From the NCBI GenBank assembly GCA_030062745.1, contig CP099841.1, positions 27,531,398 through 27,595,397 of the forward strand: DNA of 64,000 nucleotides, written 5' to 3'. Every line of letters starts with the position of its first letter. Within the stretch, counting starts at the first letter, position 1. Below are positions 17,095-54,731 of this stretch, in pieces. This DNA is from Capitulum mitella. Lineage: Eukaryota > Arthropoda > Thecostraca > Pollicipedomorpha > Pollicipedidae. The translations under genes and the position numbers were made by a program. The notes beneath the pieces were generated by a model, which ran no database searches, was not told the origin of the DNA, and saw only the letters and a program-made list of their open reading frames with translations.

Positions 17095-19876
17095 CTAGCT
17101 GTACAGCCGGCGGAAATGCTCCTGCAACCTCCGCCACGGGTCTCTGGTGAGGTAGTTGTACCAGCCGCTGCTGGCTTTGTCAGAGCCGCTGCTGACGGAG
17201 TGGGTCAGCGGCAGCTGATCGCTTCGCCGGCTGCTGATCCGACGCCGGCCCAGCGCCAGCAGCAGCAGCAGCACCAGCGACGTCCCCAGCACCACAAACA
17301 CCACCCAGAGCAGGGTGCTGGGGCCGAGCTGGGAGCCAGGTCGACGCGGCTTGGATGAGGTCGGGACGGTTGTTGAAGACGCACCTGTTGATGTCATCTG
17401 AGTTGATGACAGCGCTGTTGAAGTGGTCGCCTGGACCGTTGTTGTTGGTTTGGCTGAACTCTGTTCTGGAGTTGTCGCTGGTGATGAAGTCGTTGGCTCA
17501 GTGACGGTGGTGGACGGGGAGGTAGTCGTTTCTGCCGCGGTCGTCGTGGGTTTTGCGGTTGTTCTTTTCCCTGTCGTAGTCGTTGGCTCTGTGGTTGTCA
17601 GTTCGGTTGTGGTCGTCGGTTCTGTGGTCATTGGCTCTGTAGTTGTTGCGTGCGTGGTGGTGGTCGTTGCCTCTGTCGCTGTTGTCGGTTCGGTTGAGGT
17701 TGTTGGCTCTGTGGTTGTTGGTTCGGTTGTGGTCATTGGCGCTGTCGTTGTTGTCGGTTCAATTGTGGTCGTGAGCTCTGTTGTTGTCGGTTCGGTTGTA
17801 GTCATTGGCTCTGTTGTTGTTGTCGGTTCAGTTGTGGTCGTTGGCTCTGTTGTTGTCGGTTCGGTTGTGGTCGTTGCCTCTGTCGTTGTTGTCGGTTCAG
17901 TTGTGGTCGTTGGCTCTGTTGTTGTCGGTTTGATTGTGGTCGTTGCCTCTGTCGTTGTTGTCGGTTCGGTTGTGGTTGTTGGCGCTGTGGTTGTTGTCGG
18001 GACGGTTGTGGTTGTTGGCTCTGTGGTTGTCGTCGGTTCGGTTGTGGTTGTTGGTTTTACGGTTGTCGTGATCTGCGGGGTAGTTGATGGTTCTGTGGTG
18101 CTCGTTGCTTCTGTTGTTGTTGTCAATGCCACACATTTCTGATGTAGTTCTTTCGGACCACATACCTTGATGTCGTCAATGGCGATATTGTCCTTCTCAT
18201 TACTTCCACAGGCGCCAAAAATAAGAAGCTGAAAAGGCACAGGAATTATAAAACATGGGCCACATAAAATCACGTATTTCTCTCCATTCATGTAGGTTTT
18301 TCATTACAATATGCATAGTCCAACCTGTTTTCAAGTAGTGATCCTTATTTTTATTGCATTATTGCGCAAATTCTTGCTTTTGTCGTGATGTGTTTTTGTG
18401 CTGTGCTCAAACGCTTCTGGCGTATTTTGTGTTCGAGGGGTCTTCACTTTATAAGGTGTTGCTTCACGACATAAGTCTGGATGAATGCGTTTGGAATGTC
18501 GTGAACACGAAACTGACGATTTTTTTCTGAAACGTTTGCAGGTGAATGCAAGCAATCTTTTTTGCTCCCTGCAAAAAGCAGTCACAGTAATCGAAGGAAC
18601 ATGAGAGACTAACGTAAGTTTCAAATGGACCTTTAAGCATGCATGAGCACGCAGTATGGTACACTGCAAAGCCTTCTGTCGGCTTCATTAAAACTTGCGC
18701 CATTAATTTTGAGTTGTTTTACGTTCATTCACATCTTGAAATTTCCTCCTTGTTTTCATAATCTAGGCACCAGTGAACATCATACCCATAAATGACTGTG
18801 TTGTAAACAACATTCCTTTTGATGCATGATTAAAAAGCCGGTTGGCTTGGAATCGAATGAAGTTCCTCATCTATGGCTAAAACAGCGTATAGTATTGCAC
18901 ATTCCGCGCTTCAAGTCCGCAGTGGAACGTCTGGACAGTGGTATCGGCTACAATACCTTCCTGGGACTCATCGGCTGCAATAGCATCTTTCTGGTATATT
19001 GCACAATTAAGTGCATTTTCTGAACCATTTGCACAGTCGTGAGTTGTCCATGATGTGCTGGCCACTGAGTCAACAAACAACCATTACATGAGTGTTGCAA
19101 CGAAATAGTAAGGTGATCTGTCGTACAACGCGAAGTGGCGAGCAAATGTTTAGCAGACACTGTGCAACGAAGGTAAAAATATGCAGTTAAAATGGCACTT
19201 CTTATAATAGCGTAAAACGGCCACAGGAAAGCCATATTCCATTCTGTCCACCTGCTGGCGAAATCTTATATTACCGCGACTTGGCAACATGGATGTTCTG
19301 TTTTGGCAGACCACCCAAATCATGCTGCTTTACCGCATTTAACCTCCCGCATAGCAACTGACTGGGATATATTCGCATCAGCAGCTCAGTTCTTACCTGA
19401 AATTCTTGAGTGTCGGCGTCGATCGTCACATTCGCCTCCATCCAGTCTGCATTGCCTGGCCCGGAGGAAGATGTCAAAGACAGGATCGGATCTGGTTCTT
19501 CCTTGGACCCCACGATCCGTCTCACTTCGAACGTTCCAGACCCTGTCCATTGAGAGCGCAGCCAATAACGGAAGGACAGGCTTGATCCGTTGGGGAAGGT
19601 GTAAGCGGTTTTCATCTCCAGTCTGGCACTAACAGACTGGGATCCCTCCGCATGACTTAAATAAACGACAGTATCGCCACTTGCAGGTTCAGGAAAATCC
19701 GGTATGGTCTTCTTTAACTCAACGAAACTTGACGGTTTCCACTGGCCTCCGTAATCAAGAGAGCTCTGAGTCCAAAATTTGCCAAAATCGCCGTCTTCAA
19801 AGTCGTCACAGTACTCTCCGGAGCGCGCACGGTCCAACACCAACAGCAACGGCATCAGGGTGATCAGCAGCTTCAT
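17095..19876 (-). CDS. Gene A: one MAM-like module, Thr-rich stalk, transmembrane anchor
   Basis: Two exons (19876-19397 and 18228-17095), joined in phase 0, encode 537 residues. The order is: signal peptide about 1-19 (MKLLITLMPLLLVL...), MAM-like module about 20-192 (YCDDFEDGDFG at the start, FRYWLRSQW in the middle, DNIAIDDI and a final Cys at the end), a long stalk about 196-455 dominated by TTTTEP-type repeats that should be heavily O-glycosylated, one transmembrane helix about 465-486 (LLWVVFVVLG...LLLLLAL), and a 51-residue basic cytoplasmic tail (GRRRISSRR...DPWRRLQ). The predicted topology is type I. MAM domains act in adhesion and oligomerisation; the ligand here is unknown. The ATG is chosen because the same MKLL-I-LMPLLL start is shared with B and C. 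Four cysteines are present in the module region (near residues 23, 167, 183 and 192). The tail closely matches that of gene D. Confidence 0.8.
17423..18120 (-). repeat. Thr/Glu/Pro codon-repeat region in gene A exon 2
   Basis: The minus strand carries repeated ACC/ACA/ACG-rich units, mostly 15 or 18 nt, encoding TTTEP, TTTTEP and TTTTEA variants. The repeats give the mucin-like stalk. Imperfect units suggest expansion by slippage or unequal exchange with frame kept. Because of the composition the plus strand also stays open (a Val-rich frame), which is a shadow. Confidence 0.85.
18229..19396 (-). other. Intron of gene A
   Basis: The donor GTAAGAAC lies just below 19397 and the acceptor TTTTCAG just above 18228. 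The part from about 19085 to 19396 is closely similar to 53945-54251 in intron 1 of gene C, so the 5' part of the intron was duplicated with exon 1. The rest (18229-19084) shows no recognisable feature. Confidence 0.7.
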
Positions 19877-26949: not shown

Positions 26950-26998
26950 TGGCTCCCGATGGTCGTGGAGCCAAATAAAGCATAAAGCATAAAGACTA

Positions 26999-27971: not shown

Positions 27972-30900
27972 TCACAGTAAAACCATTTCACACTTGTGGT
28001 CCAGTCCGTCAGGGCCACGGACTATGATGTCGTCCACGGCGATGTTGTCCAATTTATGCACTCCAGTGTTGCCAAACATCAGAAGCTGAAAGGCCACATC
28101 AGTCCTAAGTAATGACGGGATCAAATTCATGACTCATAGATGAGAGTTGAGACTGTCGTGTCAGCCCACTTCACAGATTTTGACTGACGCTGTTTAAAAT
28201 GTCCAGGATTGGAGTGGAAAACGCACTGGGTTTATAACCTTCATTTATGTGACTGCAAAAATAAAATCTCAGAAACAGACAATGCAGCCACAGTTCCATG
28301 ACGGTAAATAGTGCTAAAACTATAAGTTTAATGTGCATTATTGCGTGTCTGGCGAGGAAGAATGAACAACTGCTGGAACATTGGTTCTTACCTGGAATTG
28401 TTCGGTGTCGGCAGGTAGCGGCACAGTCGCCTCCATCCAGTCTGTGTTGTTTGGCCCGGAGAAAGATGTCAGAGAAAGGATCGGATCTGGTTCTTCACTT
28501 GATCTTATAGCCCTCCTCACTTCAAAGGTTCCAGAACCGTGCCACTGAGAGCGCAACCAATACCGGAAGGATATGCTGGATGCATTGGGAAAAGTGTACT
28601 CCTTTGTCATCTTCAATCTGGCACTCACGGAAGTGCTTCCCGGTTTGGGTGTTAAATAGACAACCGTATCCCCATTAGCCGGATCAGGAAAATCTGGTAT
28701 GGTCTTCTTTAGCTCAGTGTAACTTGACGGTTTCCATTGGCCTCCGTAGTCATCAGATCCCTGTGTCCAAAATTCGCCGAAGTCGCCGTCTTCAAAGTCA
28801 TCGCAGTATTCTCCAGGCTGTACACGGGGTGTCGTTGACTCGGTGGTTGCCGTAGGTTGCAGCGTCGTTGTTCTCTGAGCCGTTGTTGATATTTTGTTGG
28901 TGGTTGCCGTCGTACTTGAGACAGTTTCACATTTGTGGTTTAGGCCATCGGGACCTCGGACTATGATGTCGTCTACGGCGATGTTGTCCAATTTATTTAC
29001 TCCAATGTTGCCAAACAGCAGAAGCTGAAAGACCACAGCAATTTTTAGTAAACACCGGATTAAACTTCAAGACACGTGAGTGTGCATGCAGCAATCTCAA
29101 CCTGTCGTGTTTCAACCAACGACTGAGAGAACATTCGCGCTGCAACCAATGACAACACGACAGTCTCAAAGTATCCTGCCAGCCTCCTTGATGAATTTCC
29201 ATTGACCCTGTCTAAAATTCCTAGGATTGGCCTGAAAAAATGTCCCACGTTAGTGCGTTTCACTTGTGATATTGTACAAACAAAATCTCAAAAACAATGG
29301 AAAATATATCTATAGTTATGAGCCTATGAACATTATGGTGTGTATGACCAGCAAGGATGAACAACTGCTTGAACACAGTTTCTTACCTGGAATTGTTCGG
29401 TGTCGGCAGGTAGCGGCACAGTCGCCTCCTTCCAGTCTGCGTTGTTTGGCCCGGAGAAAGATGTCAGAGAAAGGATCGGATCTGGTTCTTCACATGATCC
29501 TATAACCCTCCTCACTTCAAAGGTTCCAGAACCGTGCCACTGAGAGCGCAACCAGTACCGGAAGGATATGTTGGATGCATTGGGGAAAGTGTACTCCTTT
29601 GTCATCTTCAATCTGGCACTCACGGAAGTGCTTCCCGGTTTGGGTGTTAAATAGGCAACCGTATCCCCATTAGCCGGTTCAGGAAAATCTGGTATGGTCT
29701 TCTTTAGCTCAGTGTAACTTGACGGTTTCCATTGGCCTCCGTAGTCATCAGATCCCTGTGTCCAAAATTCGCCGAAGTCGCCGTCTTCAAAGTCATCGCA
29801 GTATTCTCCAGGCTGTACACGGGGTGTCGTTGACTCGGTGGTTGCCGTAGGTTGCAGCGTCGTTGTTCTCTGAGCCGTTGTTGATATTTTGTTGGTGGTT
29901 GCCGTCGTACTTGAGACAGTTTCACATTTGTGGTTTAGGCCATCGGGACCTCGGACTATGATGTCGTCTACGGCGATGTTGTCCAATTTATTTACTCCAA
30001 TGTTGCCAAACAGCAGAAGCTGAAAGACCACAGCAATTTTTAGTAAACACCGGATTAAACTTCAAGACACGTGAGTGTGCATGCAGCAATCTCAACCTGT
30101 CGTGTTTCAACCAACGACTGAGAGAACATTCGCGCTGCAACCAATGACAGCACGACAGTCTCAAAGTATCCTGCCAGCCCCTTGATGAATTTCCATCGAC
30201 CCTGTCTAAAATTCCTAGGATTGGCCTGAAAAAATGTCCCACGTTAGTGCGTTTCACTTGTGATATTGTACAAACAAAATCTCAAAAACAATGGAAAATA
30301 TATCTATAGTTATGAGCCTATGAACATTATGGTGTGTATGACCAGCAAGGATGAACAACTGCTTGAACACAGTTTCTTACCTGGAATTGTTCGGTGTCGG
30401 CAGGTAGCGGCACAGTCGCCTCCTTCCAGTCTGCGTTGTTTGGCCCGGAGAAAGATGTCAGAGAAAGGATCGGATCTGGTTCTTCACATGATCCTATAAC
30501 CCTCCTCACTTCAAAGGTTCCAGAACCGTGCCACTGAGAGCGCAACCAGTACCGGAAGGATATGCTGGATGCATTGGGGAAAGTGTACTCCTTTGTCATC
30601 TTCAATCTGGCACTCACGGAAGTGCTTCCCGGTTTGGGTGTTAAATAGACAACCGTATCCCCATTAGCCGGTTCAGGAAAATCTGGTATGGTCTTCTTTA
30701 GCTCAGTGTAACTTGACGGTTTCCATTGGCCTCCGTAGTCATCAGATCCCTGTGTCCAAAATTCGCCGAAGTCGCCGTCTTCAAAGTCATCGCAGTATTC
30801 TCCAGGCTGTACACGGGGTGTCGTTGACTCGGTGGTTGCCGTAGGTTGCAGCGTCGTTGTTCTCTGAGCCGTTGTTGATATTTTGTTGGTGGTTGCCGTC

Positions 30901-33900
30901 GTACTTGAGACAGTTTCACATTTGTGGTTTAGGCCATCGGGACCTCGGACTATGATGTCGTCTACGGCGATGTTGTCCAATTTATTTACTCCAATGTTAC
31001 CAAACAGCAGAAGCTGAAAGACCACAGCAATTTTTAGTAAACACCGGATTAAACTTCAGGACACGTAAGTGTGCATGCAGCAATCTCAACCTGTCGTGTT
31101 TCAACCAACGACTGAGAGAACATTCGCGCTGCAACCAATGACAACACGACAGTCTCAAAGTATCCTGCCAGCTCCTTGATGAATTTCCATTGACCCTGTC
31201 TAAAATTCCTAGGATTGGCCTGAAAAAATGTCCCACGTTAGTGCGTTTCACTTGTGATATTGTACAAACAAAATCTCAAAAACAATGGAAAATATATCTA
31301 TAGTTATGAGCCTATGAACATTATGGTGTGTATGACCAGCAAGGATGAACAACTGCTTGAACACAGTTTCTTACCTGGAATTGTTCGGTGTCGGCAGGTA
31401 GCGGCACAGTCGCCTCCTTCCAGTCTGCGTTGTTTGGCCCGGAGAAAGATGTCAGAGAAAGGATCGGATCTGGTTCTTCACATGATCCTATAACCCTCCT
31501 CACTTCAAAGGTTCCAGAACCGTGCCACTGAGAGCGCAACCAGTACCGGAAGGATATGCTGGATGCATTGGGGAAGGTGTACTCCTTTGTCATCTTCAAT
31601 CTGGCACTCACGGAAGTGCTTCCCGGTTTGGGTGTTAAATAGACAACCGTATCCCCATTAGCCGGTTCAGGAAAATCTGGTATGGTCTTCTTTAGCTCAG
31701 TGTAACTTGACGGTTTCCATTGGCCTCCGTAGTCATCAGATCCCTGTGTCCAAAATTCGCCGAAGTCGCCGTCTTCAAAGTCATCGCAGTATTCTCCAGG
31801 CTGTACACGGGGTGTCGTTGACTCGGTGGTTGCCGTAGGTTGCAGCGTCGTTGTTCTCTGAGCCGTTGTTGATATTTTGTTGGTGGTTGCCGTCGTACTT
31901 GAGACAGTTTCACATTTGTGGTTTAGGCCATCGGGACCTCGGACTATGATGTCGTCTACGGCGATGTTGTCCAATTTATTTACTCCAATGTTGCCAAACA
32001 GCAGAAGCTGAAAGACCACAGCAATTTTTAGTAAACACCGGATTAAACTTCAAGACACGTGAGTGTGCATGCAGCAATCTCAACCTGTCGTGTTTCAACC
32101 AACGACTGAGAGAACATTCGCGCTGCAACCAATGACAGCACGACAGTCTCAAAGTATCCTGCCAGCCCCTTGATGAATTTCCATCGACCCTGTCTAAAAT
32201 TCCTAGGATTGGCCTGAAAAAATGTCCCACGTTAGTGCGTTTCACTTGTGATATTGTACAAACAAAATCTCAAAAACAATGGAAAATATATCTATAGTTA
32301 TGAGCCTATGAACATTATGGTGTGTATGACCAGCAAGGATGAACAACTGCTTGAACACAGTTTCTTACCTGGAATTGTTCGGTGTCGGCAGGTAGCGGCA
32401 CAGTCGCCTCCTTCCAGTCTGCGTTGTTTGGCCCGGAGAAAGATGTCAGAGAAAGGATCGGATCTGGTTCTTCACATGATCCTATAACCCTCCTCACTTC
32501 AAAGGTTCCAGAACCGTGCCACTGAGAGCGCAACCAGTACCGGAAGGATATGCTGGATGCATTGGGGAAAGTGTACTCCTTTGTCATCTTCAATCTGGCA
32601 CTCACGGAAGTGCTTCCCGGTTTGGGTGTTAAATAGACAACCGTATCCCCATTAGCCGGTTCAGGAAAATCTGGTATGGTCTTCTTTAGCTCAGTGTAAC
32701 TTGACGGTTTCCATTGGCCTCCGTAGTCATCAGATCCCTGTGTCCAAAATTCGCCGAAGTCGCCGTCTTCAAAGTCATCGCAGTATTCTCCAGGCTGTAC
32801 ACGGGGTGTCGTTGACTCGGTGGTTGCCGTAGGTTGCAGCGTCGTTGTTCTCTGAGCCGTTGTTGATATTTTGTTGGTGGTTGCCGTCGTACTTGAGACA
32901 GTTTCACATTTGTGGTTTAGGCCATCGGGACCTCGGACTATGATGTCGTCTACGGCGATGTTGTCCAATTTATTTACTCCAATGTTGCCAAACAGCAGAA
33001 GCTGAAAGACCACAGCAATTTTTAGTAAACACCGGATTAAACTTCAAGACACGTGAGTGTGCATGCAGCAATCTCAACCTGTCGTGTTTCAACCAACGAC
33101 TGAGAGAACATTCGCGCTGCAACCAATGACAGCACGACAGTCTCAAAGTATCCTGCCAGCCCCTTGATGAATTTCCATCGACCCTGTCTAAAATTCCTAG
33201 GATTGGCCTGAAAAAATGTCCCACGTTAGTGCGTTTCACTTGTGATATTGTACAAACAAAATCTCAAAAACAATGGAAAATATATCTATAGTTATGAGCC
33301 TATGAACATTATGGTGTGTATGACCAGCAAGGATGAACAACTGCTTGAACACAGTTTCTTACCTGGAATTGTTCGGTGTCGGCAGGTAGCGGCACAGTCG
33401 CCTCCTTCCAGTCTGCGTTGTTTGGCCCGGAGAAAGATGTCAGAGAAAGGATCGGATCTGGTTCTTCACATGATCCTATAACCCTCCTCACTTCAAAGGT
33501 TCCAGAACCGTGCCACTGAGAGCGCAACCAGTACCGGAAGGATATGTTGGATGCATTGGGGAAAGTGTACTCCTTTGTCATCTTCAATCTGGCACTCACG
33601 GAAGTGCTTCCCGGTTTGGGTGTTAAATAGACAACCGTATCCCCATTAGCCGGTTCAGGAAAATCTGGTATGGTCTTCTTTAGCTCAGTGTAACTCGACG
33701 GTTTCCATTGGCCTCCGTAGTCATCAGATCCCTGTGTCCAAAATTCGCCGAAGTCGCCGTCTTCAAAGTCATCGCAGTATTCTCCAGGCTGTACACGGGG
33801 TGTCGTTGACTCGGTGGTTGCCGTAGGTTGCAGCGTCGTTGTTCTCTGAGCCGTTGTTGATATTTTGTTGGTGGTTGCCGTCGTACTTGAGACAGTTTCA

Positions 33901-36900
33901 CATTTGTGGTTTAGGCCATCGGGACCTCGGACTATGATGTCGTCTACGGCGATGTTGTCCAATTTATTTACTCCAATGTTACCAAACAGCAGAAGCTGAA
34001 AGACCACAGCAATTTTTAGTAAACACCGGATTAAACTTCAGGACACGTAAGTGTGCATGCAGCAATCTCAACCTGTCGTGTTTCAACCAACGACTGAGAG
34101 AACATTCGCGCTGCAACCAATGACAACACGACAGTCTCAAAGTATCCTGCCAGCTCCTTGATGAATTTCCATTGACCCTGTCTAAAATTCCTAGGATTGG
34201 CCTGAAAAAATGTCCCACGTTAGTGCGTTTCACTTGTGATATTGTACAAACAAAATCTCAAAAACAATGGAAAATATATCTATAGTTATGAGCCTATGAA
34301 CATTATGGTGTGTATGACCAGCAAGGATGAACAACTGCTTGAACACAGTTTCTTACCTGGAATTGTTCGGTGTCGGCAGGTAGCGGCACAGTCGCCTCCT
34401 TCCAGTCTGCGTTGTTTGGCCCGGAGAAAGATGTCAGAGAAAGGATCGGATCTGGTTCTTCACATGATCCTATAACCCTCCTCACTTCAAAGGTTCCAGA
34501 ACCGTGCCACTGAGAGCGCAACCAGTACCGGAAGGATATGCTGGATGCATTGGGGAAGGTGTACTCCTTTGTCATCTTCAATCTGGCACTCACGGAAGTG
34601 CTTCCCGGTTTGGGTGTTAAATAGACAACCGTATCCCCATTAGCCGGTTCAGGAAAATCTGGTATGGTCTTCTTTAGCTCAGTGTAACTTGACGGTTTCC
34701 ATTGGCCTCCGTAGTCATCAGATCCCTGTGTCCAAAATTCGCCGAAGTCGCCGTCTTCAAAGTCATCGCAGTATTCTCCAGGCTGTACACGGGGTGTCGT
34801 TGACTCGGTGGTTGCCGTAGGTTGCAGCGTCGTTGTTCTCTGAGCCGTTGTTGATATTTTGTTGGTGGTTGCCGTCGTACTTGAGACAGTTTCACATTTG
34901 TGGTTTAGGCCATCGGGACCTCGGACTATGATGTCGTCTACGGCGATGTTGTCCAATTTATTTACTCCAATGTTGCCAAACAGCAGAAGCTGAAAGACCA
35001 CAGCAATTTTTAGTAAACACCGGATTAAACTTCAAGACACGTGAGTGTGCATGCAGCAATCTCAACCTGTCGTGTTTCAACCAACGACTGAGAGAACATT
35101 CGCGCTGCAACCAATGACAGCACGACAGTCTCAAAGTATCCTGCCAGCCCCTTGATGAATTTCCATCGACCCTGTCTAAAATTCCTAGGATTGGCCTGAA
35201 AAAATGTCCCACGTTAGTGCGTTTCACTTGTGATATTGTACAAACAAAATCTCAAAAACAATGGAAAATATATCTATAGTTATGAGCCTATGAACATTAT
35301 GGTGTGTATGACCAGCAAGGATGAACAACTGCTTGAACACAGTTTCTTACCTGGAATTGTTCGGTGTCGGCAGGTAGCGGCACAGTCGCCTCCTTCCAGT
35401 CTGCGTTGTTTGGCCCGGAGAAAGATGTCAGAGAAAGGATCGGATCTGGTTCTTCACATGATCCTATAACCCTCCTCACTTCAAAGGTTCCAGAACCGTG
35501 CCACTGAGAGCGCAACCAGTACCGGAAGGATATGCTGGATGCATTGGGGAAAGTGTACTCCTTTGTCATCTTCAATCTGGCACTCACGGAAGTGCTTCCC
35601 GGTTTGGGTGTTAAATAGACAACCGTATCCCCATTAGCCGGTTCAGGAAAATCTGGTATGGTCTTCTTTAGCTCAGTGTAACTTGACGGTTTCCATTGGC
35701 CTCCGTAGTCATCAGATCCCTGTGTCCAAAATTCGCCGAAGTCGCCGTCTTCAAAGTCATCGCAGTATTCTCCAGGCTGTACACGGGGTGTCGTTGACTC
35801 GGTGGTTGCCGTAGGTTGCAGCGTCGTTGTTCTCTGAGCCGTTGTTGATATTTTGTTGGTGGTTGCCGTCGTACTTGAGACAGTTTCACATTTGTGGTTT
35901 AGGCCATCGGGACCTCGGACTATGATGTCGTCTACGGCGATGTTGTCCAATTTATTTACTCCAATGTTGCCAAACAGCAGAAGCTGAAAGACCACAGCAA
36001 TTTTTAGTAAACACCGGATTAAACTTCAAGACACGTGAGTGTGCATGCAGCAATCTCAACCTGTCGTGTTTCAACCAACGACTGAGAGAACATTCGCGCT
36101 GCAACCAATGACAGCACGACAGTCTCAAAGTATCCTGCCAGCCCCTTGATGAATTTCCATCGACCCTGTCTAAAATTCCTAGGATTGGCCTGAAAAAATG
36201 TCCCACGTTAGTGCGTTTCACTTGTGATATTGTACAAACAAAATCTCAAAAACAATGGAAAATATATCTATAGTTATGAGCCTATGAACATTATGGTGTG
36301 TATGACCAGCAAGGATGAACAACTGCTTGAACACAGTTTCTTACCTGGAATTGTTCGGTGTCGGCAGGTAGCGGCACAGTCGCCTCCTTCCAGTCTGCGT
36401 TGTTTGGCCCGGAGAAAGATGTCAGAGAAAGGATCGGATCTGGTTCTTCACATGATCCTATAACCCTCCTCACTTCAAAGGTTCCAGAACCGTGCCACTG
36501 AGAGCGCAACCAGTACCGGAAGGATATGTTGGATGCATTGGGGAAAGTGTACTCCTTTGTCATCTTCAATCTGGCACTCACGGAAGTGCTTCCCGGTTTG
36601 GGTGTTAAATAGACAACCGTATCCCCATTAGCCGGTTCAGGAAAATCTGGTATGGTCTTCTTTAGCTCAGTGTAACTTGACGGTTTCCATTGGCCTCCGT
36701 AGTCATCAGATCCCTGTGTCCAAAATTCGCCGAAGTCGCCGTCTTCAAAGTCATCGCAGTATTCTCCAGGCTGTACACGGGGTGTCGTTGACTCGGTGGT
36801 TGCCGTAGGTTGCAGCGTCGTTGTTCTCTGAGCCGTTGTTGATATTTTGTTGGTGGTTGCCGTCGTACTTGAGACAGTTTCACATTTGTGGTTTAGGCCA

Positions 36901-39900
36901 TCGGGACCTCGGACTATGATGTCGTCTACGGCGATGTTGTCCAATTTACTTACTCCAATGTTACCAAACAGCAGAAGCTGAAAGACCACAGCAATTTTTA
37001 GTAAACACCGGATTAAACTTCAAGACACGTAAGTGTGCATGCAGCAATCTCAACCTGTCGTGTTTCAACCAACGACTGAGAGAACATTCGCGCTGCAACC
37101 AATGACAACACGACAGTCTCAAAGTATCCTGCCAGCTCCTTGATGAATTTCCATTGACCCTGTCTAAAATTCCTAGGATTGGCCTGAAAAAATGTCCCAC
37201 GTTAGTGCGTTTCACTTGTGATATTGTACAAACAAAATCTCAAAAACAATGGAAAATATATCTATAGTTATGAGCCTATGAACATTATGGTGTGTATGAC
37301 CAGCAAGGATGAACAACTGCTTGAACACAGTTTCTTACCTGGAATTGTTCGGTGTCGGCAGGTAGCGGCACAGTCGCCTCCTTCCAGTCTGCGTTGTTTG
37401 GCCCGGAGAAAGATGTCAGAGAAAGGATCGGATCTGGTTCTTCACATGATCCTATAACCCTCCTCACTTCAAAGGTTCCAGAACCGTGCCACTGAGAGCG
37501 CAACCAGTACCGGAAGGATATGCTGGATGCATTGGGGAAAGTGTACTCCTTTGTCATCTTCAATCTGGCACTCACGGAAGTGCTTCCCGGTTTGGGTGTT
37601 AAATAGACAACCGTATCCCCATTAGCCGGTTCAGGAAAATCTGGTATGGTCTTCTTTAGCTCAGTGTAACTTGACGGTTTCCATTGGCCTCCGTAGTCAT
37701 CAGATCCCTGTGTCCAAAATTCGCCGAAGTCGCCGTCTTCAAAGTCATCGCAGTATTCTCCAGGCTGTACACGGGGTGTCGTTGACTCGGTGGTTGCCGT
37801 AGGTTGCAGCGTCGTTGTTCTCTGAGCCGTTGTTGATATTTTGTTGGTGGTTGCCGTCGTACTTGAGACAGTTTCACATTTGTGGTTTAGGCCATCGGGA
37901 CCACGGACCATAATGTCGTCTACGGCGATGTTGTCCAATTTATTTACTCCAATGCTGCCAAACAGCAGAAGCTGAAAGACCACAGAAATGTCTCATAATC
38001 ACCAGATAAAGTTCAGTTCACTAGGTACGCCTTGAGACTGCCGTGTCGCCCCGCCGTCCTCCCCCTGATTGGTTTGGACTGACCTTGTTAAAATTTACAA
38101 CTAGAAAGAGATTACACAGCCAGGACCTTGTGTAACATGCTACCTGGAGGGTGGGGTAGTGGGAGGAATTGAAATTTTGGGAGTCATAACTTATAATACG
38201 AGATCTGTTGTTGAGACGAAACATTTTCTCGGATTCAAAGTCCCTCCAAAAATGTCACGTTCTTCCATATTTTTCAGTCGTGTTTGTATCACAGGTGCAG
38301 TGGTGGTATGCAGAAGCACACAGCATTATGTATGCAAGTAAAGTAAACATGTAAAATAAATACGCATGCTGATGCAGTAAATGTAGGGATTTCTGCGGAA
38401 ACAGAGTACTTTTCCTAATGTGAAGCCACTGCAAAGAATGTTCTGCCTCCCAGTTTTTTATGCCTGAATCGACAGTAGTAGTGTATGCAAACTAATGGTT
38501 GACTGAGTGGTTGACATACACTGACAACATCTTTTTTTATGCTGCGATGACATCGAAAAGAGAGAAGCCCAAAACAATGCGGTTGAACTATGAAGGGGAG
38601 AGGGCGCTTAGATAACAGGTTAGAGCCATAGAAAAAGGTGGGCCTAGAAAAACGCCGTGGTCTTTTACGAATACATGCAGCCATAACCGGAAAATCATGA
38701 CTGTGCTATTTCTATGTGGTCTACGTTCGAAGAATTCGCCATTTTAAACTATGCGTTTTTGCCCTGAAAATGTCCGTTTTTCTCAATTGCTTGCCTTCCC
38801 ATCAGGCATTAACTCGGTTTAACCGGACCAACCCAATATATTTAGAGCTCAATAAAAAGCATCACGACACGATATTTGACCCCATTTAGCCTATAGCACT
38901 TGTTGATGCAATTTTTAAGTCATAATGGTCCCAAACCAGCCATTTTCTTAGAAACGAAATCGAATTCGTTGGCATGCGTGGTTTGAATACGGGACATAAT
39001 ACCATATGGTACCAAATGAAGACTACTGAAAAACAAGCCGACGAACACAAAACGTCGAACAACACAAACTACGACGGACGTGAAACTCGAACGGGAAAAA
39101 TCAAAGTGGTTAACTCTGGAAACATTTTCCTATTTTTTCGCATTATTTAATCAGCTCCGGCCCCCTGATTCGAAATCCAATGTGAGACCGGCAAAAATCG
39201 CAACGTACGTTGCTCTTTATAGTCCTCAAAGTGGCGCTCAGCTAAAACGGCCTGTTATTTCTTGTGACGTCACGAAACCCCCAGTGGCTGGCAGGTCCTG
39301 CGGGGCCATGACGTTTAGCACGGCAGAAAAACTCACTCCGGATTTTTGCCTGCAGTTCCTGAACCGTCCGAGATAAAACCGTGAAACTTGGTGACTGCTC
39401 TTAATGCCCTTTCTAACACATGTTGGCATAAACACACAATTCCAGGGCGTCAAGTGGCGGCACTAGAAGGAGGTTAAGGGATGCACATTCTAAAAATTAA
39501 ACGTAGTTTCATAGTCCGGGAGTTGAAACTAAATGTCACCTACTGGCCAAATTGCCACCTCCTCGGGAAGGCCGATTACCCCGTAGACCCTCCCACTGCT
39601 TTAGAACCAACGCAAAACCATCCCCGGTTAGCTCGGAGTGCAAACGCTATATTAACCCTCGCCAGTCTGGTGGTGGGGGGTAGGGACGGGTTGGTGCAAC
39701 ACCTGCCGGTTTTTCCGGGGTAGATGATGAACCGGCCGGCCAAATGGGCTGAAATTTTGGCTACCCGAGTTTTGAACCATTTTTACACATGCCCTGAAAC
39801 CTTCATGTTCATGTCATGTCAGGCCATTGAGTTGGCTGCAAAAATACTGGCATTTTACGTCACATACAGATTGATGTAGTATGCTAGGTTCGAGTCCTTG

Positions 39901-42759
39901 CCCCCCCCCCAAAAAAAAATTCCCTTTATCTTTTCCCAGTGGTTTTTGGAGGATTTAGGCAGTGATTACTGTTGCCAGGGGTCCTCTAACTTGTAATAAC
40001 GCATGACAGCGGGCTAGAAATTTCTTTCCCGGCGTCCTTGATACAAGAATCGAGGAACATACCACCGGTCTCCGACGACCGCCTACGCTGTTTATCACAT
40101 TTGCCAACAGGTCACAGCTTGGGAAGAAGGAACGGAAAATTCTCAAACAGCCGGGACTTGAATTCCGTCCTTGATCTTGGCAGACAGAAGTCCTGATCAC
40201 CCCATCGTCAGATTCATGTTCTGGTATAATCTGCATCCTTCGAGATATTTAATTGTTACCTTTAGTCCACTTCAAGCTTTGTAAAACGAAAGTTGGCCAT
40301 TCTGTACTCGCCTTTATGCGATGACCGCCCCTGATGCCGTGATGCAAAGTATAACCTCGCGATGTTTTTGCAGTTCGGCATTTCACATTTTTCATGTTAA
40401 TCGGCGTTCATATTATTCCATCTCTATATCTTGCGTCGGCGATTTGTTTATCCAGTATTTTGCCACGTAATACTTTTCCATCCCAATAAATATCGTTTTT
40501 CAGTATTTTTTCATTCGTTTGTATATATTTGTTCGATATTTTGCCATACGAAGTTTTCCCGTTTGTTGTTCATCACCATCCACATTTATCCTCTACGATA
40601 GATGTCGACATTTTGACCGTTTTGAATTTTGACAACATCGAATGCAAAATGTTGAAATTATTTTGAATATTTTGCATTAAATATTCTGTCACACGGCATT
40701 TTGTTAAGTAACCGTGTTGTCTCCAGTTCCGAAGACAAATGCGGGTTAGAAACCAATGATGCGTGATGAAATATGTATATCACTCACATGCGACATAAGA
40801 CAAATGTGATCAGTTTTCATGTCTTATCCCAACCGGTACTGATTTTCTCCTGCAATTTTTCTCATGCTGCAATTTAAGTTTATTAATCATGAAGCGGAGT
40901 ATGGATGTCTGCATAAGTGTTTTCCTTGAAAATGCCGTTCGTTAGTTCAAGGTCTTTCCCTTACCATTATTGATTTTTCCCGCAATTGCTCTAATGTTGC
41001 ATACGTAAGTTTATTAGTCATGACTCAGAATGTAAATGTATACCTTATTCTACTCGAAAGTAGCAGTGTTTCGTATCCCTTTGTATCCCACAATGCCCTC
41101 ATTTCAAGAGATCCCTATCTCTCACGAAAACGCCTATACCTTCGTAACCATTCACATATTTTTTTTGCAGACGCTAGTGAGCTGGGAACACCCACTGGAA
41201 CAAGGTCTCGTCTTGGTACCCGCCGATTTATGCAAACATACGACAGAGAAGGCAGTGGGTTTCTTCTTACAGGAAATTCTCTGCCCCTGTTCGGAACGTG
41301 GTCGGTACACCCTACACAGGCCACATATTTCATGGAATGGAGCAAAAAAACTGTATCAACCCAACTGTATGCACCACAGGAATGACACCAGAAGACTTAA
41401 ATTGTACCTGCGAATCATTCAACCGTTCCTAGCGTCCCAAGAAATGGAGCCAGTCAAGCACTGCAGCAACATAGTGACATGTATCATTGGCCAGAGTAGG
41501 ATACATTCCTCCGAGTTGTACGGAAGTCGGCTTCATGACTAAACAATTGCATGAAAGAGACATGGTTAAACAAAGCTTGATAAAGTCGTGCATAGTTAAT
41601 GGGGCCGATTTTCTCAAGAAATTACACCATATTAAATGATGTTATTGTACAAGGTCTTTTGCCTCATGTAGCATGCGGTTGTCATTTGCATTATATAGCA
41701 GCACATTGTAATTTAGTTCACGTTTGTCTCCCGAAGTGTGCATGAACGACATGCTCAAAGGGATTTGGTTCCGCTCCCACAAAAAATATATTTTCCTAGG
41801 TATATGTGTGGCGAAAACCACACTTTCAGGTCAAAGAGTACCCTAAAATGTAAAATGTAGGGCCACTTTTGAACTGTCGGAGTCAAAACATAGGGTTGAG
41901 TGGTTTAAACGAGGTTATGATTCATGAAAACGTTGACAGTCAAGGAAAACCATCACTTTCAAGGCAAAATTGCGTAGTGTAAAGAAGGTTTAAAAAGGCC
42001 AGTCTCGCATGGTAACCCCTCCTAAACAAATAAAAAATCCTGTTCTGAGGGGATGCATTGAGATATATGCGGATTCCTCCTCACTTCATCTCTAGACCAC
42101 CGAAGTAGGCAGGTGCTACTGGAATACAAGGCTGGAAGATGTGGCACCGCAGTCAAAATTCGAAAAACGAGGCCTTGCATGCAACCGTAGTTCCGTGACT
42201 ATAAATAGCGATCAAGTTGATGTTCGCTATAGTATGCATGGCGAGCAAAACCGAACAACTATTGAAACTTTGTTCTTACCTGGACTGGTTCGGTGTCGGC
42301 AGGTATCGGCACAGTCGCCTCCATCCAGTCTGCGTTGTTTGGCCCGGAGGAAGGTGTCAGAGAATGGATCGGATCTGGTTCTTCACTTGATCCTATTACC
42401 CTCCTCACTTCAAAGGTTCCAGAACCGTGCCACTGAGAGCGCAACCAATACCGGAAGGATATGCTGGGTGCATTGGGGAAAGTGTACTGCTTTGTCATCT
42501 TCAATCTGGCGCTCACGGAAGTGCTCCCCGGTTTGGGTGTTAAATAGATAACCGTATCCCCATTAGCCGGCTCAGGAAAATCTGGTATGGTCTTCTTTAG
42601 CTCAGTGTAATTTGCCGGTTCCCAATGGCCTCCGTAGTCATCAGATCCCTGAGCCCAAAATTCGCCGAAATCGCCATTTTCAAAGTCGTCGCAGTACTCT
42701 CCGCGGAGAGCACGGCTCGGCGCCAGCAGCAGTGGCATCAAGCTGATCAGCAACTTCAT
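27972..42759 (-). CDS. Gene B: secreted protein with eleven MAM-like modules
   Basis: Twelve exons are proposed: 42759-42280; ten 633-nt exons ending at 37971, 36977, 35983, 34989, 33995, 33001, 32007, 31013, 30019 and 29024 (each starting 632 lower); and 28085-27972 with stop TGA at 27972-27974. All junctions are phase 0 with GTAAGA donors and CTTTCAG acceptors. The product is 2,307 residues: a signal peptide (MKLLISLMPLLLAPS...), eleven MAM-like modules joined by Thr-rich linkers of about 35 residues, and a stop seven residues after the last module cysteine (KCEMVLL), with no anchor. Each 633-nt exon encodes the back of one module (LLLFGNIGVNKLDN...), the linker, and the front of the next (GEYCDDFEDGDFG...). 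Modules 2-10 carry an extra Cys (GSCEEP). The role is unknown; an extracellular adhesive or multimerising protein is an inference. Copy number depends on correct assembly of near-identical units. Confidence 0.75.
28392..37971 (-). repeat. Tandem array of ten exon-intron units (994 bp) in gene B
   Basis: Each unit is a 633-nt exon plus a 361-nt intron (362 nt in the leftmost intron). The nine right-hand units repeat at exactly 994 bp and differ by only a few bases each, in introns as much as in exons. The leftmost unit (28392-29024) is slightly more diverged (RSSEEP instead of GSCEEP; Asp-Pro instead of Glu-Pro). Shared variants show a three-unit super-period of 2,982 bp. Equal conservation of introns and exons points to recent duplication or gene conversion rather than only protein-level selection. 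Confidence 0.95.
37972..42279 (-). other. Intron 1 of gene B
   Basis: A 4.3-kb intron between the signal-peptide exon and the array. About the first 60 bases next to the array exon resemble the unit introns, then the similarity ends. The rest holds a candidate tRNA-derived SINE (39955-40236), a C-run/A-run at 39900-39920, loosely repeated ATTTTGCC/CGATATTTTG words at 40430-40690, and no recognised gene. Open frames at 41020-41542 have no known domain. Confidence 0.6.
39955..40236 (-). mobile_element. Candidate tRNA-derived SINE
   Basis: On the minus strand a box-A-like TGGGGTGATCAGG (about 40205) is followed about 40 nt later by a box-B-like GAATTCAAGTCCCGG, the spacing expected of an RNA polymerase III promoter of tRNA origin. 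The body that follows is unrelated to tRNA. No second copy was found in the window, so this rests on motifs only. Confidence 0.35.
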
Positions 42760-44448: not shown

Positions 44449-47400
44449 TCACAGGTGAAGTAATTCACACCTGTGGTTCAGTCCATCAGGACCACGCACT
44501 GTAATATCGTCCACGGCGATATTATCCATTTCGTTTGCTCCGCAAGCTCCAAATATGAGAAGCTGAAAAACACAGAAATTCCAAACAGTTGCAGCTCACT
44601 TACTCACTGGACAAACTTGAGCTGGAATAAATCTCCACACTGATGTGTCAAATGCCTCCATGAATTTAGATACACGTTGTCTTAGATCTGTAGGATTGAA
44701 TGCGGAAAACGTTCTGCGTTTGCAAACTTCATTTATGAAGTTTCACGAACGAAAATTAGATAGAGACCATGCAACCATAGCAAAGGTAATCAGGGCTACA
44801 GATATCAGCTTAATGGGCCTTATTTTGTGCATGTCGAGCAAAACTAAACCACTACTGAAACTGAAATTCTTACCTGGACTGGTTCGGTGTCGGCAGGTAT
44901 CGTCACATTCGCCTCCATCCAGTCTGCGTTGTCTGGCCCGGAGGAAGATGTCAAAGACAGAATCGGATCTGGTTCTTCTTTGGACCCCATGATCCGCCTC
45001 ACTTCGAACGTTCCAGACCCTATCCATTGAGAACGCAGCCAATAACGAAAGGACAGGCTTGATCCGTTGGGGAAGGTGTAAGCAGTTTTCATCTCCAGTC
45101 TGGCACTGACAGACTGGGATCCTTCCGCAGGAGTTAAATAAACGACAGTATCGCCACTTGCAGGCTCAGGAAAATCCGGTATGGTCTTCTTTAACTCAAT
45201 GTAACTTGACGGTTTCCACTGGCCTCCGTAATCAAGAGAGCTCTGAGTCCAAAATTCGCCAAAATCGCCGTCTTCAAAGTCGTCGCAGTACTCTCCAGGC
45301 TGTACACCAGGTGTTGTTGACCAGGTAATTCTTGTTGTTTGCGGCATGGTTGTTCCCTGATCGGTTGTTTGTATTTCGCTGGTGGTTCCTGTGGAAGTTG
45401 TGACTATTTCACATTTATGGTGCAGTCCATCGGGACCACGTACTACGATGTCGTCCACGGCGATGTTATCTTTTTCATTCGTTCCACAGGCTCCGAATAT
45501 GAGAAGCTGAAAAATCATAGAAATTCTTAATAATTACAAAGTGCAGTTCAAGAACTTTAACTGCAAGTTCAAATTATGCAGTCCAAGTACTAACTCAATG
45601 AAGTTCAGTTCGAATACGACAACGTTCAAACTAATGAACTTTAAACTAATTCAAGCTAATTCACTGCTACCACACTTCCGTAAAAAAAAACATTCACATT
45701 ATCATAAGTTATCATAAGTTAGCCTTTGGCCAATCTTGGTACACTTCGCCGCTGTCAAAATGTCAAAATGTGTCAAATCTGGCGGATAACATTGGATATC
45801 ATGTAAGACTATAATGAATGGATAATGTTTACATAAAATGCGTCATTTTCAACCTTAACCCTATTTCCGGAGGGCTAGACGGTATGGTCGATTCCCGGCA
45901 GGGGGGATTCGGCCCCCTCGAGAACTACTCGTCCGATTTCATCGCAACAAACGGCAATCGATTTGCCGTGACGTGAACTACATTTTTATAAAAAGAAATT
46001 TCCAAAATTTTGAAATTTGTGGATGCAGTGGGGCAAAAATGACAAAATGGGGAGTACTTTTGGACTTCTTATAACTCCGTTGTTTTTGGACCGATTTCAA
46101 TGAAACTGGCATGAATCGAGAGATCATGGATAGGGCTTTTACCATGGGTCCGCAAATCTGAAATTTCGAGAAAATTCATGGGCGTTCACAGGGTTTCAAA
46201 AATAGGAGGGTTAGTTTTCTAACAAATTAATTAACAAAAAAGGTAAAACACTTTTTTGGCTTCTGCTAGTCATGCTATGCTAAAGAAGTAAAAATCGCAT
46301 TACAATGTTTGTATAATGTTAGCATAGGCGGTGCCAGGGACATGAAAAAGGGGGAACTGTCATGGTCACACGTTCTTCAGATCACCTTGTGACCTTTCAC
46401 CTTAAATGACCTCTATTGACCTTGGGGTCACCTGGAATGATCTCGTGTGCATTTAATATTATCTGTAAACGTTTTCAATCATTTGAATTCACTCTATTTC
46501 AAAAATTTCATGTTATGGCTATTGCGATATAGGGTACGCGCACTGACATTTTAGGTCATAGCTCCGTGACCCGACCTGATATCAAGCTGAAACCTGGTAC
46601 ACAAGTAGAGGGCACCGTTGTACGTCATATGTATTCCGGGTTTGGCATTTGAAAGAACGGCAATGAAATTATTGCAAAAAAACAAATTTTGACTTTTGAC
46701 CTTGACCTGACCCTGTAAATTGATCTCAGATAAATAAAATTTTGTGCGCACATTGCCCAACTATTTAGCTATACATTCATTTGAAGTTTTAAGTTCTATC
46801 TTAAAAAGTCTGTTTTTGGCAGACATTTTTCTTGTACCCTCAACATGGCTAAAAACGTTGCCTGACTCCGCTCCTGAGCAAAATAGAATTGTGAAATTTT
46901 GTCACAGCGCGTAGAAAGAATAGCTAGGAAAAGTGACCAAGGTTCGTGAAGCTGCGTTAAAAAGCCTGGAATTGGCAAGCAAAAACTCCAAGGGGGCGGA
47001 TTCAGCCCCCCCCCTGCCTGCAATAGGGTTAAAGTAAAACAAGCCTAAAACCATCATTCTGCGGGTAAAAAAAACTGTCACGCACATGTCAGTAGCCACA
47101 GCATATGTAACAGTCTGCCGAAAATGCTCACATATGGCTCACTTTATTAGCCGCTCATTGTACTTTTAGGCTATACTGAGAAATCTGTTTCTCAAACCTC
47201 TCTGGCACGGTGGTGGCCCATATCCTAACTGGGCAATTATTCTCTGTAAGATCGACTCACCGCGAACACCCTCAAGACGCTGATTTTGATGAAGATGGTT
47301 CCAGGGGGTTATCTGGGGCGCAGAAGGCGAACCTGACAATTTCAGCTCGATCAGGTAAAGAGGTCAAAAGTCGTGGCCTGCGGCAATTTGAACTTTGCTC

Positions 47401-48360
47401 TTGACATGGGCTGTTAAAAGTGCGTTTTTCTCCACGATCAAAAGTCGTAAACCAATAAACCAATATATTTTCTGGCTCCTTATAAAACGGGCAATCCGAT
47501 TCAGTTAGTTGTATGACCTTAGGTGACGATTCCAGAGAATGGCCTCGTGGCCTTAGGTCAGACATCACAAGATGACCTTTGACGGGGGCGAAAGTAATTA
47601 TTTTTATTTCGTCAATATGAAGCCTCAGGTATCTTCTCCACATCCCATTCATTAAAATTTTGGGTATGAATCATCTTCAACCTCAAATCTTGCATGATAG
47701 CAGGCCGTGTTTGGGCTAAAATCGGCTCATTTCGTGACTGTTGAGCTTACACTGTTAACGCGACAAAAGCGGAGAGTAACAGGAACGATGACTCACGGAA
47801 TGGAATAAATGGCGTAGCATCTGATGACAAACGAAACATATTCCGAGGTTTCAACAATCACTGTAGCACTGGAAAGGGGCTAAAAACGTTAAGTACCATA
47901 ACTAAGATTTCTTGCCAAAGCGCAGTGAAAACAACGTCTTTTTTTATAGTTTGCAATATATTTCTCGATGAGTTCTCAGCATAAGCTGATAACTTACATT
48001 ACCAAAGAGCCAAGAGGGTCGTAAAACAAGGCTAATATATCTCAAGAACATCTATCATTAACCCTGCGGCAATGCATTGGAAGAATTGGTTTACAACTGG
48101 ATCACAAACTTCGTCACCACTTTTGGAGACAATCAAGCGCCTACGCATCTGTGAAGTAGTTAGTGTGCGATGGGAGAGAGCGCGAGTAAAGGTCGACAAG
48201 ACCCAGAGAAACCAAAGTAGATGCGTTTCTGGTTTCACCTCACGCGTCGAGGGCGACGGCCGGCCGGCAGACGGCGACGGGCGACCGGCGAGTGACGACG
48301 GGCGGCCGGCGGCGTTGTTACCGTGACTGGTGCTGTGCGTGATAGTGCTGTCTGCGGTCC

Positions 48361-48400
<40 letters not shown>

Positions 48401-54400: not shown

Positions 54401-54731
54401 TCCATTGAGAACGCAGCCAATAACGGAAGGACAGGCTTGATCCGTTGGGGAAGGTGTAAGCGGTCTTCATCTCCAATCGGGCACTAACAGACTGGGATCC
54501 CTCCGCATGAGTTAAATAAAGGACAGTATCGCCACTTGCAGGTTCAGGAAAATCCGGTATTGTCTTCTTTAACTCAATGTAACTTGACGGTTTCCACTGG
54601 CCTCCGTAATCAAGAGAGCTCTGAGTCCAAAATTTGCCAAAATCGCCGTCTTCAAAGTCGTCACAGTACTCTCCGGAGCGCGAACGGTCCAACACCAACA
54701 GCAACGGCATCAGGATGATCAGCAGCTTCAT
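44449..54731 (-). CDS. Gene C: secreted protein with three MAM-like modules
   Basis: Four exons, 54731-54252, 53584-52952, 45506-44874 and 44562-44449 (stop TGA 44449-44451), joined in phase 0, encode 619 residues. The order is: signal peptide (MKLLIILMPLLLVLDRS...), three MAM-like modules (each from YCDDFEDGDFG to DNIAVDDI-V-GPDGL and a final Cys), two Thr-rich linkers, and a stop seven residues after the last cysteine (CELLHL), without a membrane anchor. Exon lengths (480, 633, 633, 114) are the same as the corresponding exons of gene B. Modules carry a Cys in GACG that B has lost. Intron 2 (45507-52951) is swollen by transposons, and intron 1 carries a stub of a lost exon. The protein is predicted to be secreted; its partner is unknown. 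Confidence 0.8.
45859..47028. mobile_element. Non-autonomous piggyBac-type element in gene C intron 2
   Basis: TTAA at 45855-45858 and at 47029-47032 flank a 1,170-bp segment beginning CCCTATTTCCGG and ending TGCAATAGGG, so the outer inverted pair is TTAACCCTATT/AATAGGGTTAA. A further inside pair (GGCAGGGGGG-ATTCGGCCCCC and its mirror near 46990-47020) reinforces the assignment. TTAA target duplication with CCC termini is the known signature of piggyBac elements. No transposase frame is seen inside. Confidence 0.75.
47200..47785 (+). repeat. Left long inverted repeat of the intron 2 transposon
   Basis: Matches the reverse complement of 50765-51330 over about 580 bp with moderate divergence. 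Anchors include AATTTCAGCTCGATC, ATTCCAGAGAATGGCC and TATCTTCTCCACATCCCATTCAT. It is rich in TGACCT/AGGTCA words. The true outer end is not sharply defined and may lie further left. Confidence 0.75.
48362..48428. repeat. (TA)n microsatellite
   Basis: About 65 bp of AT dinucleotides with two GG or GT interruptions, inside the transposon. It follows a short GC-rich tandem stretch (48250-48315, GACGG-CGGCCGGC units). Confidence 0.9.
48485..50335 (+). pseudogene. Decayed DDE-type transposase-like gene between long inverted repeats
   Basis: The clearest part is in one plus-strand frame from about 49700 to 50060: FSDGCAGQYKN, then CHHQESY, EWNFFATSHGKNACDGIGG and TVKRATGRASL. This core recurs in many unnamed arthropod transposase-like proteins, as I recall them. 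The same frame continues to about 50330 with two in-frame stops (at 50063 and about 50237) and conserved-looking text (ADIYKNCVENISNNI). Upstream, 48490-48610 reads as a cysteine-rich segment (NILTDKCQELKCLRG, CKNCF) in another frame. It is thus broken by stops and frame changes. It sits inside intron 2 of gene C on the opposite strand. The superfamily is not assigned. Confidence 0.55.
50765..51330 (-). repeat. Right long inverted repeat of the intron 2 transposon
   Basis: Inverted partner of 47200-47785. Together the arms bound an element of about 4.1 kb. Beyond it, 51370-52951 completes the intron and shows no recognised gene; a 180-codon minus frame at 52119-52661 has no recognisable domain. 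Confidence 0.75.
53910..53935 (-). pseudogene. 26-nt stub of a lost module exon in gene C intron 1
   Basis: On the minus strand this reads as the last residues of a module front half (ADTEPVQ) followed by an intact GTAAGAATTTC donor. Directly upstream (from about 53936) the sequence switches to that of the intron following exon 1 of gene A (19085 onward). The stub therefore marks a deletion or unequal-exchange junction. It has no acceptor of its own, so exon 1 should splice past it to 53584. Confidence 0.75.
54252..54731 (-). CDS. Exon 1 of gene C (signal peptide and first half-module)
   Basis: This 480-nt exon is the same length as exon 1 of A (19397-19876) and B (42280-42759). It ends EFQ before GTAAGAACTG. 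Its flanks on both sides align with those of gene A, and protein and intron are closer to A than to B, so C exon 1 and A exon 1 are the more recent duplicates or have been converted. Confidence 0.85.

What the first reader, a model, noticed from the sequence alone, without database searches (positions are those of the whole stretch)
28392..37971. A 994-bp exon-intron unit tandemly repeated ten times builds an eleven-module MAM protein
Seen directly: ten 633-nt exons, open, phase 0 at both ends, with near-identical introns. The intron sits inside the MAM-like module, so each duplication adds one full module (half, linker, half) without breaking the frame. Established: symmetrical exons allow modular growth. 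Inference: gene B is an actively expanding secreted bead-on-string protein, and module number may vary between individuals. I know of no described MAM protein with this repeat structure.
Basis: partly seen in the sequence, partly recalled or inferred. Interest (0 to 1): 0.9.

Follow-up and report, generated by a model that had tools for sequence, protein, structure and literature searches.

The report
Tandem exon array, eleven-MAM secreted protein
A gene, probably from an animal, appears to have grown by copying one exon with its intron head to tail until ten such exons stand in a row, so that it would encode a long secreted chain of eleven nearly identical adhesion-type (MAM) domains; the way of growth resembles that of the human LPA gene, and the exact copy number needs long reads to confirm.

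Summary
On the minus strand ten 633-nt exons lie at the given coordinates, all open, phase 0 at both ends, with matching splice sites. Correction: nine full exon+intron units (994/995 bp) plus a tenth exon with a diverged 306-nt intron. With a signal-peptide-like first exon and a stop-bearing last exon they give 2307 aa with 11 MAM domains 211 aa apart. Joining across the intron raises the Pfam MAM score from 28 to 45.1 bits.

New here: (1) four co-oriented paralogues with 1 (frame interrupted), 3, 11 and 1 MAM domains; (2) the repeated exon looks like a fusion of a stalk exon with a first exon, made before genes A and B split; (3) a three-unit super-period: units 2-4 and 5-7 differ at 2 of 2982 sites; (4) only units 1-9 carry an extra cysteine and, in their introns, an inverted near-copy of the linker.

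Likely mechanism: unequal crossing-over on a symmetrical exon, as in LPA KIV-2. Copy number, variation between individuals and transcription are untested; an inflated assembly is not excluded.

The parts
42280..42759 (-). Gene B exon 1: signal-peptide-like start (MKLLISLMPLLL...) and MAM residues 1-141, ends CAG|GTAAGA
   Evidence: Pfam MAM 23.3 bits for this exon alone, below the 26.4 cut-off
37339..37971 (-). Module exon u1 (633 nt, phase 0-0); its four private sites lie in its first 69 nt (array edge)
36345..36977 (-). Module exon u2
35351..35983 (-). Module exon u3 (identical to u6, intron included)
   Evidence: Pfam MAM 28 bits
34357..34989 (-). Module exon u4 (identical to u7, intron included)
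33363..33995 (-). Module exon u5
32369..33001 (-). Module exon u6
31375..32007 (-). Module exon u7
30381..31013 (-). Module exon u8 (mosaic: position 15 as in u2/u5, position 449 as in u3/u6)
29387..30019 (-). Module exon u9 (its intron is 362 nt)
28392..29024 (-). Module exon u10, edge copy: eight own differences from position 342 on, followed by a diverged 306-nt intron; Ser instead of the array Cys
27972..28085 (-). Gene B terminal exon: last 35 MAM residues, two more residues and a stop at the same place as in gene A
30715..36677 (.). Two copies of a 2982-bp three-unit block: exact run of 2981 nt (30715-33695 against 33697-36677) at lag 2982
37070..37109 (-). Intron arm (first of nine) of an inverted near-copy of the linker; its core lies 123 to 92 nt before each acceptor of u2-u10 and it is complementary to exon positions about 136-179
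44449..54731 (-). Paralogue gene A: exon 1 54252-54731, modules 52952-53584 and 44874-45506, terminal exon 44449-44562 with stop; 3 MAM domains
17095..19876 (-). Paralogue gene C: exon 1 19397-19876, terminal exon 17095-18228 with long Thr-rich stalk and a hydrophobic (transmembrane-like) stretch; 1 MAM domain
60425..63726 (-). Paralogue G1: MAM-like first exon (matches 63312-63726, reading frame interrupted) and terminal exon 60425-60958 with short stalk and a hydrophobic (transmembrane-like) stretch

Best explanation
Gene B is a real protein-coding gene in a tandem cluster of MAM genes. It encodes a secreted, acidic chain (2307 aa, computed 254 kDa, pI 4.66) of eleven MAM domains joined by Ser/Thr-rich, probably O-glycosylated linkers. 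The repeated exon arose once, before genes A and B split, by fusion of the start of a stalk exon (MAM end plus stalk) with the end of a first exon (MAM start), which made a phase 0-0 exon. Because that exon is symmetrical and its introns match, misaligned (unequal) crossing-over adds or removes whole domains in frame and keeps the units alike; the latest visible event duplicated a three-unit block. Shown from sequence: anatomy, phases, homologies, super-period, edge copies. Inferred: splicing, secretion, glycosylation, an adhesive or matrix role, crossing-over as the cause.
For: 10 of 10 exons open and in phase. The spliced domain scores 45.1 against 28 bits for the exon in Pfam MAM and aligns without a gap at the splice junction with the neuropilin-1 MAM domain (5l73, E 2.7e-7). 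N-parts of A and B (3 of A, 5 of the 11 of B compared) have dS 0.64-0.91 and dN/dS 0.16-0.26. Linkers of A and B align without gaps (77 and 82 of 105 nt). The linker start matches the G1 stalk in register (0, 1 and 0 of 2000 codon shuffles do as well for Am1, Am2 and u3). A and B share the stop position, and 349 aligned nt around and behind it are 70% identical. The unit intron matches two introns of gene A (scores 100 and 90, shuffle mean about 26). Lag-3 unit distance 2.5 against 6.14-6.6 at lags 1, 2, 4, 5 (4.33 at lag 6); 262 of 100000 orderings reach it. The four private sites of u1 lie in its first 69 nt and the eight own exon differences of u10 from 342 on; u2, u5 and u9 have 1, 1 and 2 private sites.
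Against: No transcript or protein data. The long-stalk gene C does not clearly support the fusion (340, 1043 and 40 of 2000 shuffles reach the observed score). Among the ten exons 11 replacement and 7 silent sites show at most weak constraint. The structure model of the exon failed (mean pLDDT 47.1). dS between exon 1 of B and its modules (0.10-0.12) is far below A-B, so gene conversion must contribute. Upstream of Am2 no intron match was found (score 33, z 1.6).
Confidence: 0.75

Rival explanations
1. Partly an assembly artefact: the true locus has fewer units, and the assembler duplicated a block (most likely units 2-4 or 5-7) or strung two alleles together.
For: Units 3=6 and 4=7 are exactly identical; the two three-unit blocks differ at 2 of 2982 sites, a level that allelic difference or read error could give.
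Against: 7 of 9 units are distinct, with private sites in u1, u2, u5 and u9 and a mosaic u8; the edge copies diverge as in an old array; gene A shows that the same exon multiplied elsewhere. None of this fixes the number of units.
Confidence: 0.3
2. Old array kept alike by gene conversion rather than young array made by recent duplication; number of units stable.
For: Exon 1 of B is also close to its modules (93.6% identity), although the fused exon seems to predate the A-B split; u8 is a mosaic.
Against: Conversion alone does not readily give a three-unit phase running through exons and introns alike over 2981 identical bases.
Confidence: 0.2
3. Gene B is decaying and not expressed; identity only reflects recent copying.
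For: Replacement to silent sites of 11 to 7 among the ten exons; dN/dS of 0.46-0.58 between exon 1 and the modules compared and 0.84-1.12 for u10 against u1, u3 and u9, from few changes. Neighbour G1 has an interrupted first exon.
Against: All 12 coding exons are open with intact splice sites.
Confidence: 0.12

Closest known systems
LPA (apolipoprotein a) kringle IV type 2 repeat
   Same: Coding repeat of exon plus intron DNA in which an intron splits the domain; exons 98-100% alike, homology reaching into introns, at least three unit subtypes (PMC7613587, passages seen).
   Different: Kringle instead of MAM; unit of two exons and about 5550 bp instead of one exon and 994 bp; known to vary in number (about 40 alleles), untested here.
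Zonadhesin (VWD repeat of zebrafish zan; MAM-mucin-VWD proteins)
   Same: In-frame tandem duplication of symmetrical exon blocks in an extracellular mosaic protein; MAM domains with mucin-type stretches (PMC1325057, passages seen).
   Different: There the repeated part is VWD, 17 exons in about 5-kb blocks, phase 1, 85-87% identical; here one phase-0 MAM exon, the ten copies 98.7-100% identical to u3, and no VWD found in the exons scanned.
MAM/LDL-receptor repeat proteins (Diet1, endotubin, a coral skeletal protein)
   Same: Long series of MAM domains (PMC4890752, passages seen; that Diet1 is MALRD1 is recalled).
   Different: There MAM alternates with LDL-receptor and other domains; here MAM and Ser/Thr-rich linker only.
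Bivalent spider venom peptides (Hc1a family)
   Same: Whole-domain change by unequal crossing-over between similar domains (PMC13172734, abstract and outline seen).
   Different: First duplication inside one exon, not involving introns; small cystine-knot domains.

Membership tests
MAM domain (Pfam PF00629) | Score above the Pfam cut-off (26.4 bits) over the domain | tested here: met
   Spliced inner domain of gene B 45.1 bits, profile 2-152 of 158; 7 of 7 spliced domains match at E up to 0.1, best 1.1e-13; the bit scores of the other six are not printed
MAM domain (Pfam PF00629) | Four conserved cysteines, typical of the family (recalled, from no call) | tested here: inconclusive
   Gene B domains hold 2 (first and last) or 3 (nine inner) cysteines; gene C's holds 4 (counted). 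Positions were not mapped on the profile
LPA KIV-2-type coding exon-intron repeat (as a kind of system) | Head-to-tail repeats of exon and intron DNA that keep the frame, introns as alike as exons | tested here: met
   10 of 633 exon and 6 of 362 intron columns vary among u1-u9
LPA KIV-2-type coding exon-intron repeat (as a kind of system) | Number of units varies among individuals | not testable with these tools
   One assembly only; no reads, and no genome held for the window
LPA KIV-2-type coding exon-intron repeat (as a kind of system) | Kringle domain | tested here: not met
   The module exon matches only MAM in Pfam at E up to 1, so it works like LPA but is no member of that gene family
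Zonadhesin | MAM, mucin and VWD domains in one protein | tested here: not met
   No VWD match in the seven cluster exons scanned; mucin-like stalk only in genes C and G1
MAM/LDL-receptor repeat proteins | LDL-receptor class A domains between MAM domains | tested here: not met
   Between MAM domains lies only a 35-aa Ser/Thr-rich linker; no LDL-receptor match

The most novel reading that the evidence does not exclude
The array is a population-variable coding repeat whose amplified unit has gained two parts that act on the product. An extra cysteine in each of the nine inner domains (odd count, 3 per domain) would link chains into a disulfide polymer. An intron arm complementary to the exon linker encloses every acceptor of u2-u10 in a stem; since all nine arms are nearly the same, an arm can pair with a later linker and loop out whole exons in frame, so that splicing as well as DNA sets the number of domains.
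Probability: 0.12. Interest if true: 0.75.

Novelty: new variant of a known kind. Interest (0 to 1): 0.5.

Why it matters
One 64-kb stretch appears to show successive stages of domain-by-domain protein growth: one-domain membrane-type genes, a fused symmetrical exon, a three-domain gene and an eleven-domain gene whose units still carry the trace of the last block duplication. If true, the step from a single-domain to a many-domain protein becomes directly testable, and the LPA repeat gains a counterpart in another gene family (the organism was not identified).

Tried and rejected
Own-genome search: no genome is held. Relatives in public contigs: none confirmed in viral contigs with the exon or with the spliced alignment, none in genome contigs; these collections hold viral and prokaryote contigs, so little was to be expected. 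tRNA and Rfam scans of the window: nothing. Ten other long frames against Pfam at E up to 0.01: no match, so the organism was not identified. Tandem Repeats Finder did not list the array because its longest period is 500. AlphaFold model of the exon (alignment of 10 window sequences, one of two jobs): mean pLDDT 47.1, therefore not used and no fold search run. PDB search with one N-part alone gave only an unrelated weak match (E 0.044); the profile of spliced domains worked.

RNA duplex energies of whole introns with exon starts were uninformative: shuffles doing as well were 8, 13, 8 and 6 of 60 for u2, u3, u9 and u10, 58 for u1, 0 for Am1, 9 for Am2, and 33, 53, 35 and 46 for the terminal exons of A, B, C and G1; the measure allows long loose pairings. 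The inverted near-copy was then tested by local alignment: 0 of 1000 intron shuffles for the three array introns tested (of nine), against 994, 790, 374 and 905 of 1000 for intron 1 with u1, Am1, Am2, and the u10 intron with u10. The u3 region folds better than 100 of 100 shuffles (z -3.46); Am1, Am2 and u1 do not (z -0.15, -0.98, 1.37). The nine arms are copies of one sequence and count as one observation.

Considered and rejected: modules formed independently in A and B (same gapless linker and junction); one single gene across A and B (each has its own signal-peptide-like exon and its own stop). The tree of the short C-part (99 nt) has several nodes below 60 and is not relied on. Rows dropped: one search compared 9 of 15 N-parts and 9 of 16 C-parts; one search left u10 out of the unit distances and the exon/intron variation count, but not out of the replacement/silent count.
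Full report
What is there. The window has no N. On the minus strand ten exons of 633 nt lie between 37971 and 28392, exactly the coordinates of the finding. All ten are open, begin after TTTCAG, end in CAG before GTAAGA, and are phase 0 at both ends. In one search the tenth unit was read one base off, which made it look unrelated; one search puts it right (start 29024). Nine exons are followed by near-identical introns (361 nt; 362 after u9), the tenth by a diverged one of 306 nt. So 'ten tandem units' is nine full units plus one exon.

The product. With the signal-peptide-like exon 1 (42280-42759) and the terminal exon (27972-28085) the gene would give 2307 aa: eleven MAM domains at a spacing of exactly 211 residues (10 of 10 intervals), 31 cysteines and 15 N-glycosylation motifs; the one linker counted (36 residues as cut there) has 18 Ser or Thr. 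The exon alone scores 28 bits with Pfam MAM (profile 2-130); joined to the next exon the domain scores 45.1 bits (2-152 of 158), and 7 of 7 spliced domains of the cluster match MAM. A profile of the seven finds the neuropilin-1 MAM domain (5l73, E 2.7e-7), aligned without a gap at the splice junction. This supports the predicted junction without RNA.

The family. tblastn with parts of the module shows four genes in one orientation: G1 (one MAM-like first exon with an interrupted frame, short stalk, hydrophobic stretch), A (three MAM, stop), B (eleven MAM, stop) and C (one MAM, long Thr-rich stalk, hydrophobic stretch). The domain-splitting intron lies at the matching place in all four. A and B end at the same stop position, and 349 aligned nt around and behind it are 70% identical. 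The stop in both may stem from a frame change of a stalk exon (inference from the alignment).

Origin of the repeated exon. It consists of MAM residues 142-176, a linker, and MAM residues 1-141, that is, the start of a terminal exon followed by the end of a first exon. The linkers of A and B are equally long and align ungapped (Am1-u3 82, Am2-u3 77 of 105 nt), so the fusion most likely happened once, before A and B split. The linker start aligns in register with the stalk of G1: 0, 1 and 0 of 2000 codon shuffles do as well for Am1, Am2 and u3; the stalk of C gives no clear match (340, 1043 and 40 of 2000). Introns of A that border its modules match the array intron too (up of Am1 score 100, up of the terminal exon 90, down of Am1 62; shuffle mean about 26); up of Am2, of C's and of G1's terminal exon do not (33, 27, 20).

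Growth. Units 1-9 vary at 10 of 633 exon and 6 of 362 intron columns (Fisher p 1.0), so introns are as alike as exons; I infer that the likeness comes from DNA copying rather than selection on the protein. Mean unit distance is lowest at lag 3 (2.5, against 6.38, 6.14, 6.6 and 6.25 at lags 1, 2, 4, 5; 4.33 at lag 6); 262 of 100000 orderings reach the lag-3 value. An exact run of 2981 nt exists at lag 2982, and units 2-4 differ from 5-7 at 2 of 2982 sites. The private sites of u1 lie in its first 69 nt and the own exon differences of u10 from 342 on, as expected of an array that mixes in the middle and diverges at the edges. In the tree of the N-part (all 15 open copies, 423 nt) one split with support 100 parts the B exons, exon 1 included, from those of A and C. 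As the fused exon seems older than the A-B split, conversion or repeated replacement within each gene must have taken place.

Selection. A-B comparisons have dS 0.64-0.91 and dN/dS 0.16-0.26: the domain has been under constraint. Within B the ratios are higher (0.46-0.58 exon 1 against the modules compared; 0.84-1.12 for u10 against u1, u3 and u9), on few changes.

Two features of the amplified unit only. First, a TGT cysteine codon at exon position 526 in u1-u9; u10 and exon 1 of B have AGT; Am2, Ae1 and Ce1 have AAA or AAG. Inner domains so have three cysteines, the two outer ones two. Second, an intron stretch 123 to 92 nt before the acceptor, present at 9 of 9 acceptors (u2-u10, up to 2 substitutions allowed), is complementary to the linker at about exon positions 136-179 (38-40 nt, 76-78%). 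In the three introns tested 0 of 1000 shuffles do as well; u1, gene A and the u10 intron lack it. The region of u3 folds with this stem (-112.9 kcal/mol, z -3.46, 0 of 100 shuffles). All nine are copies of one sequence, so this is a single observation, and the duplex energies did not set it apart. What it does, if anything, is open: a stem around the splice site and pairing with later linkers are possible, and so is an accident of copying.

Known relatives in kind. LPA KIV-2 is the nearest in mechanism: each kringle split over two exons, KIV-2 exons 98-100% alike, homology reaching into introns, at least three unit types (PMC7613587, 12 of 14 places seen). Zebrafish zonadhesin grew by blocks of 17 symmetrical exons (PMC1325057, 12 of 26 places seen). 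Series of MAM domains in MAM/LDL-receptor proteins are known (PMC4890752, 11 of 11 places seen) but mixed with other domains. The listings named no MAM-only array of this kind in title or start of abstract; I did not open most of the listed papers. A tick paper seen in one passage (PMC11555925) bears on a MAM protein but not on repeats.

Limits. No reads, no RNA, no species, one assembly. The three-unit block is the part most open to doubt: an assembler could have made it. The protein's role (adhesive or matrix chain) is inferred from MAM proteins in general.

Noticed in passing
window 26997-27711: A 715-bp element with 55-nt inverted ends (91% complementary) sits just behind gene B; the 3' homology between A and B stops where it begins, as if it had inserted into the 3' region.
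   Followed up: partly
window 63312-63726, minus strand: MAM-like first exon of paralogue G1 with an interrupted reading frame: pseudogene or sequence error.
   Followed up: partly
window 17615-18123: The Thr-rich stalk of gene C is itself a minisatellite (periods 36 and 69), a second coding repeat in the cluster.
   Followed up: no
window 37070-37109 and its eight copies: Inverted near-copy of the exon linker in each array intron; origin and effect unexplained.
   Followed up: partly
window 5377-5632: Tandem repeat of period 40/80, about 6 copies of the shorter unit, in a C-rich stretch.
   Followed up: no
window 19397-19819 and 54252-54674: First exons of genes C and A are 97% identical (dS 0.08) although the C-parts of their terminal exons are only 68% identical, which suggests gene conversion of exon 1.
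   Followed up: partly
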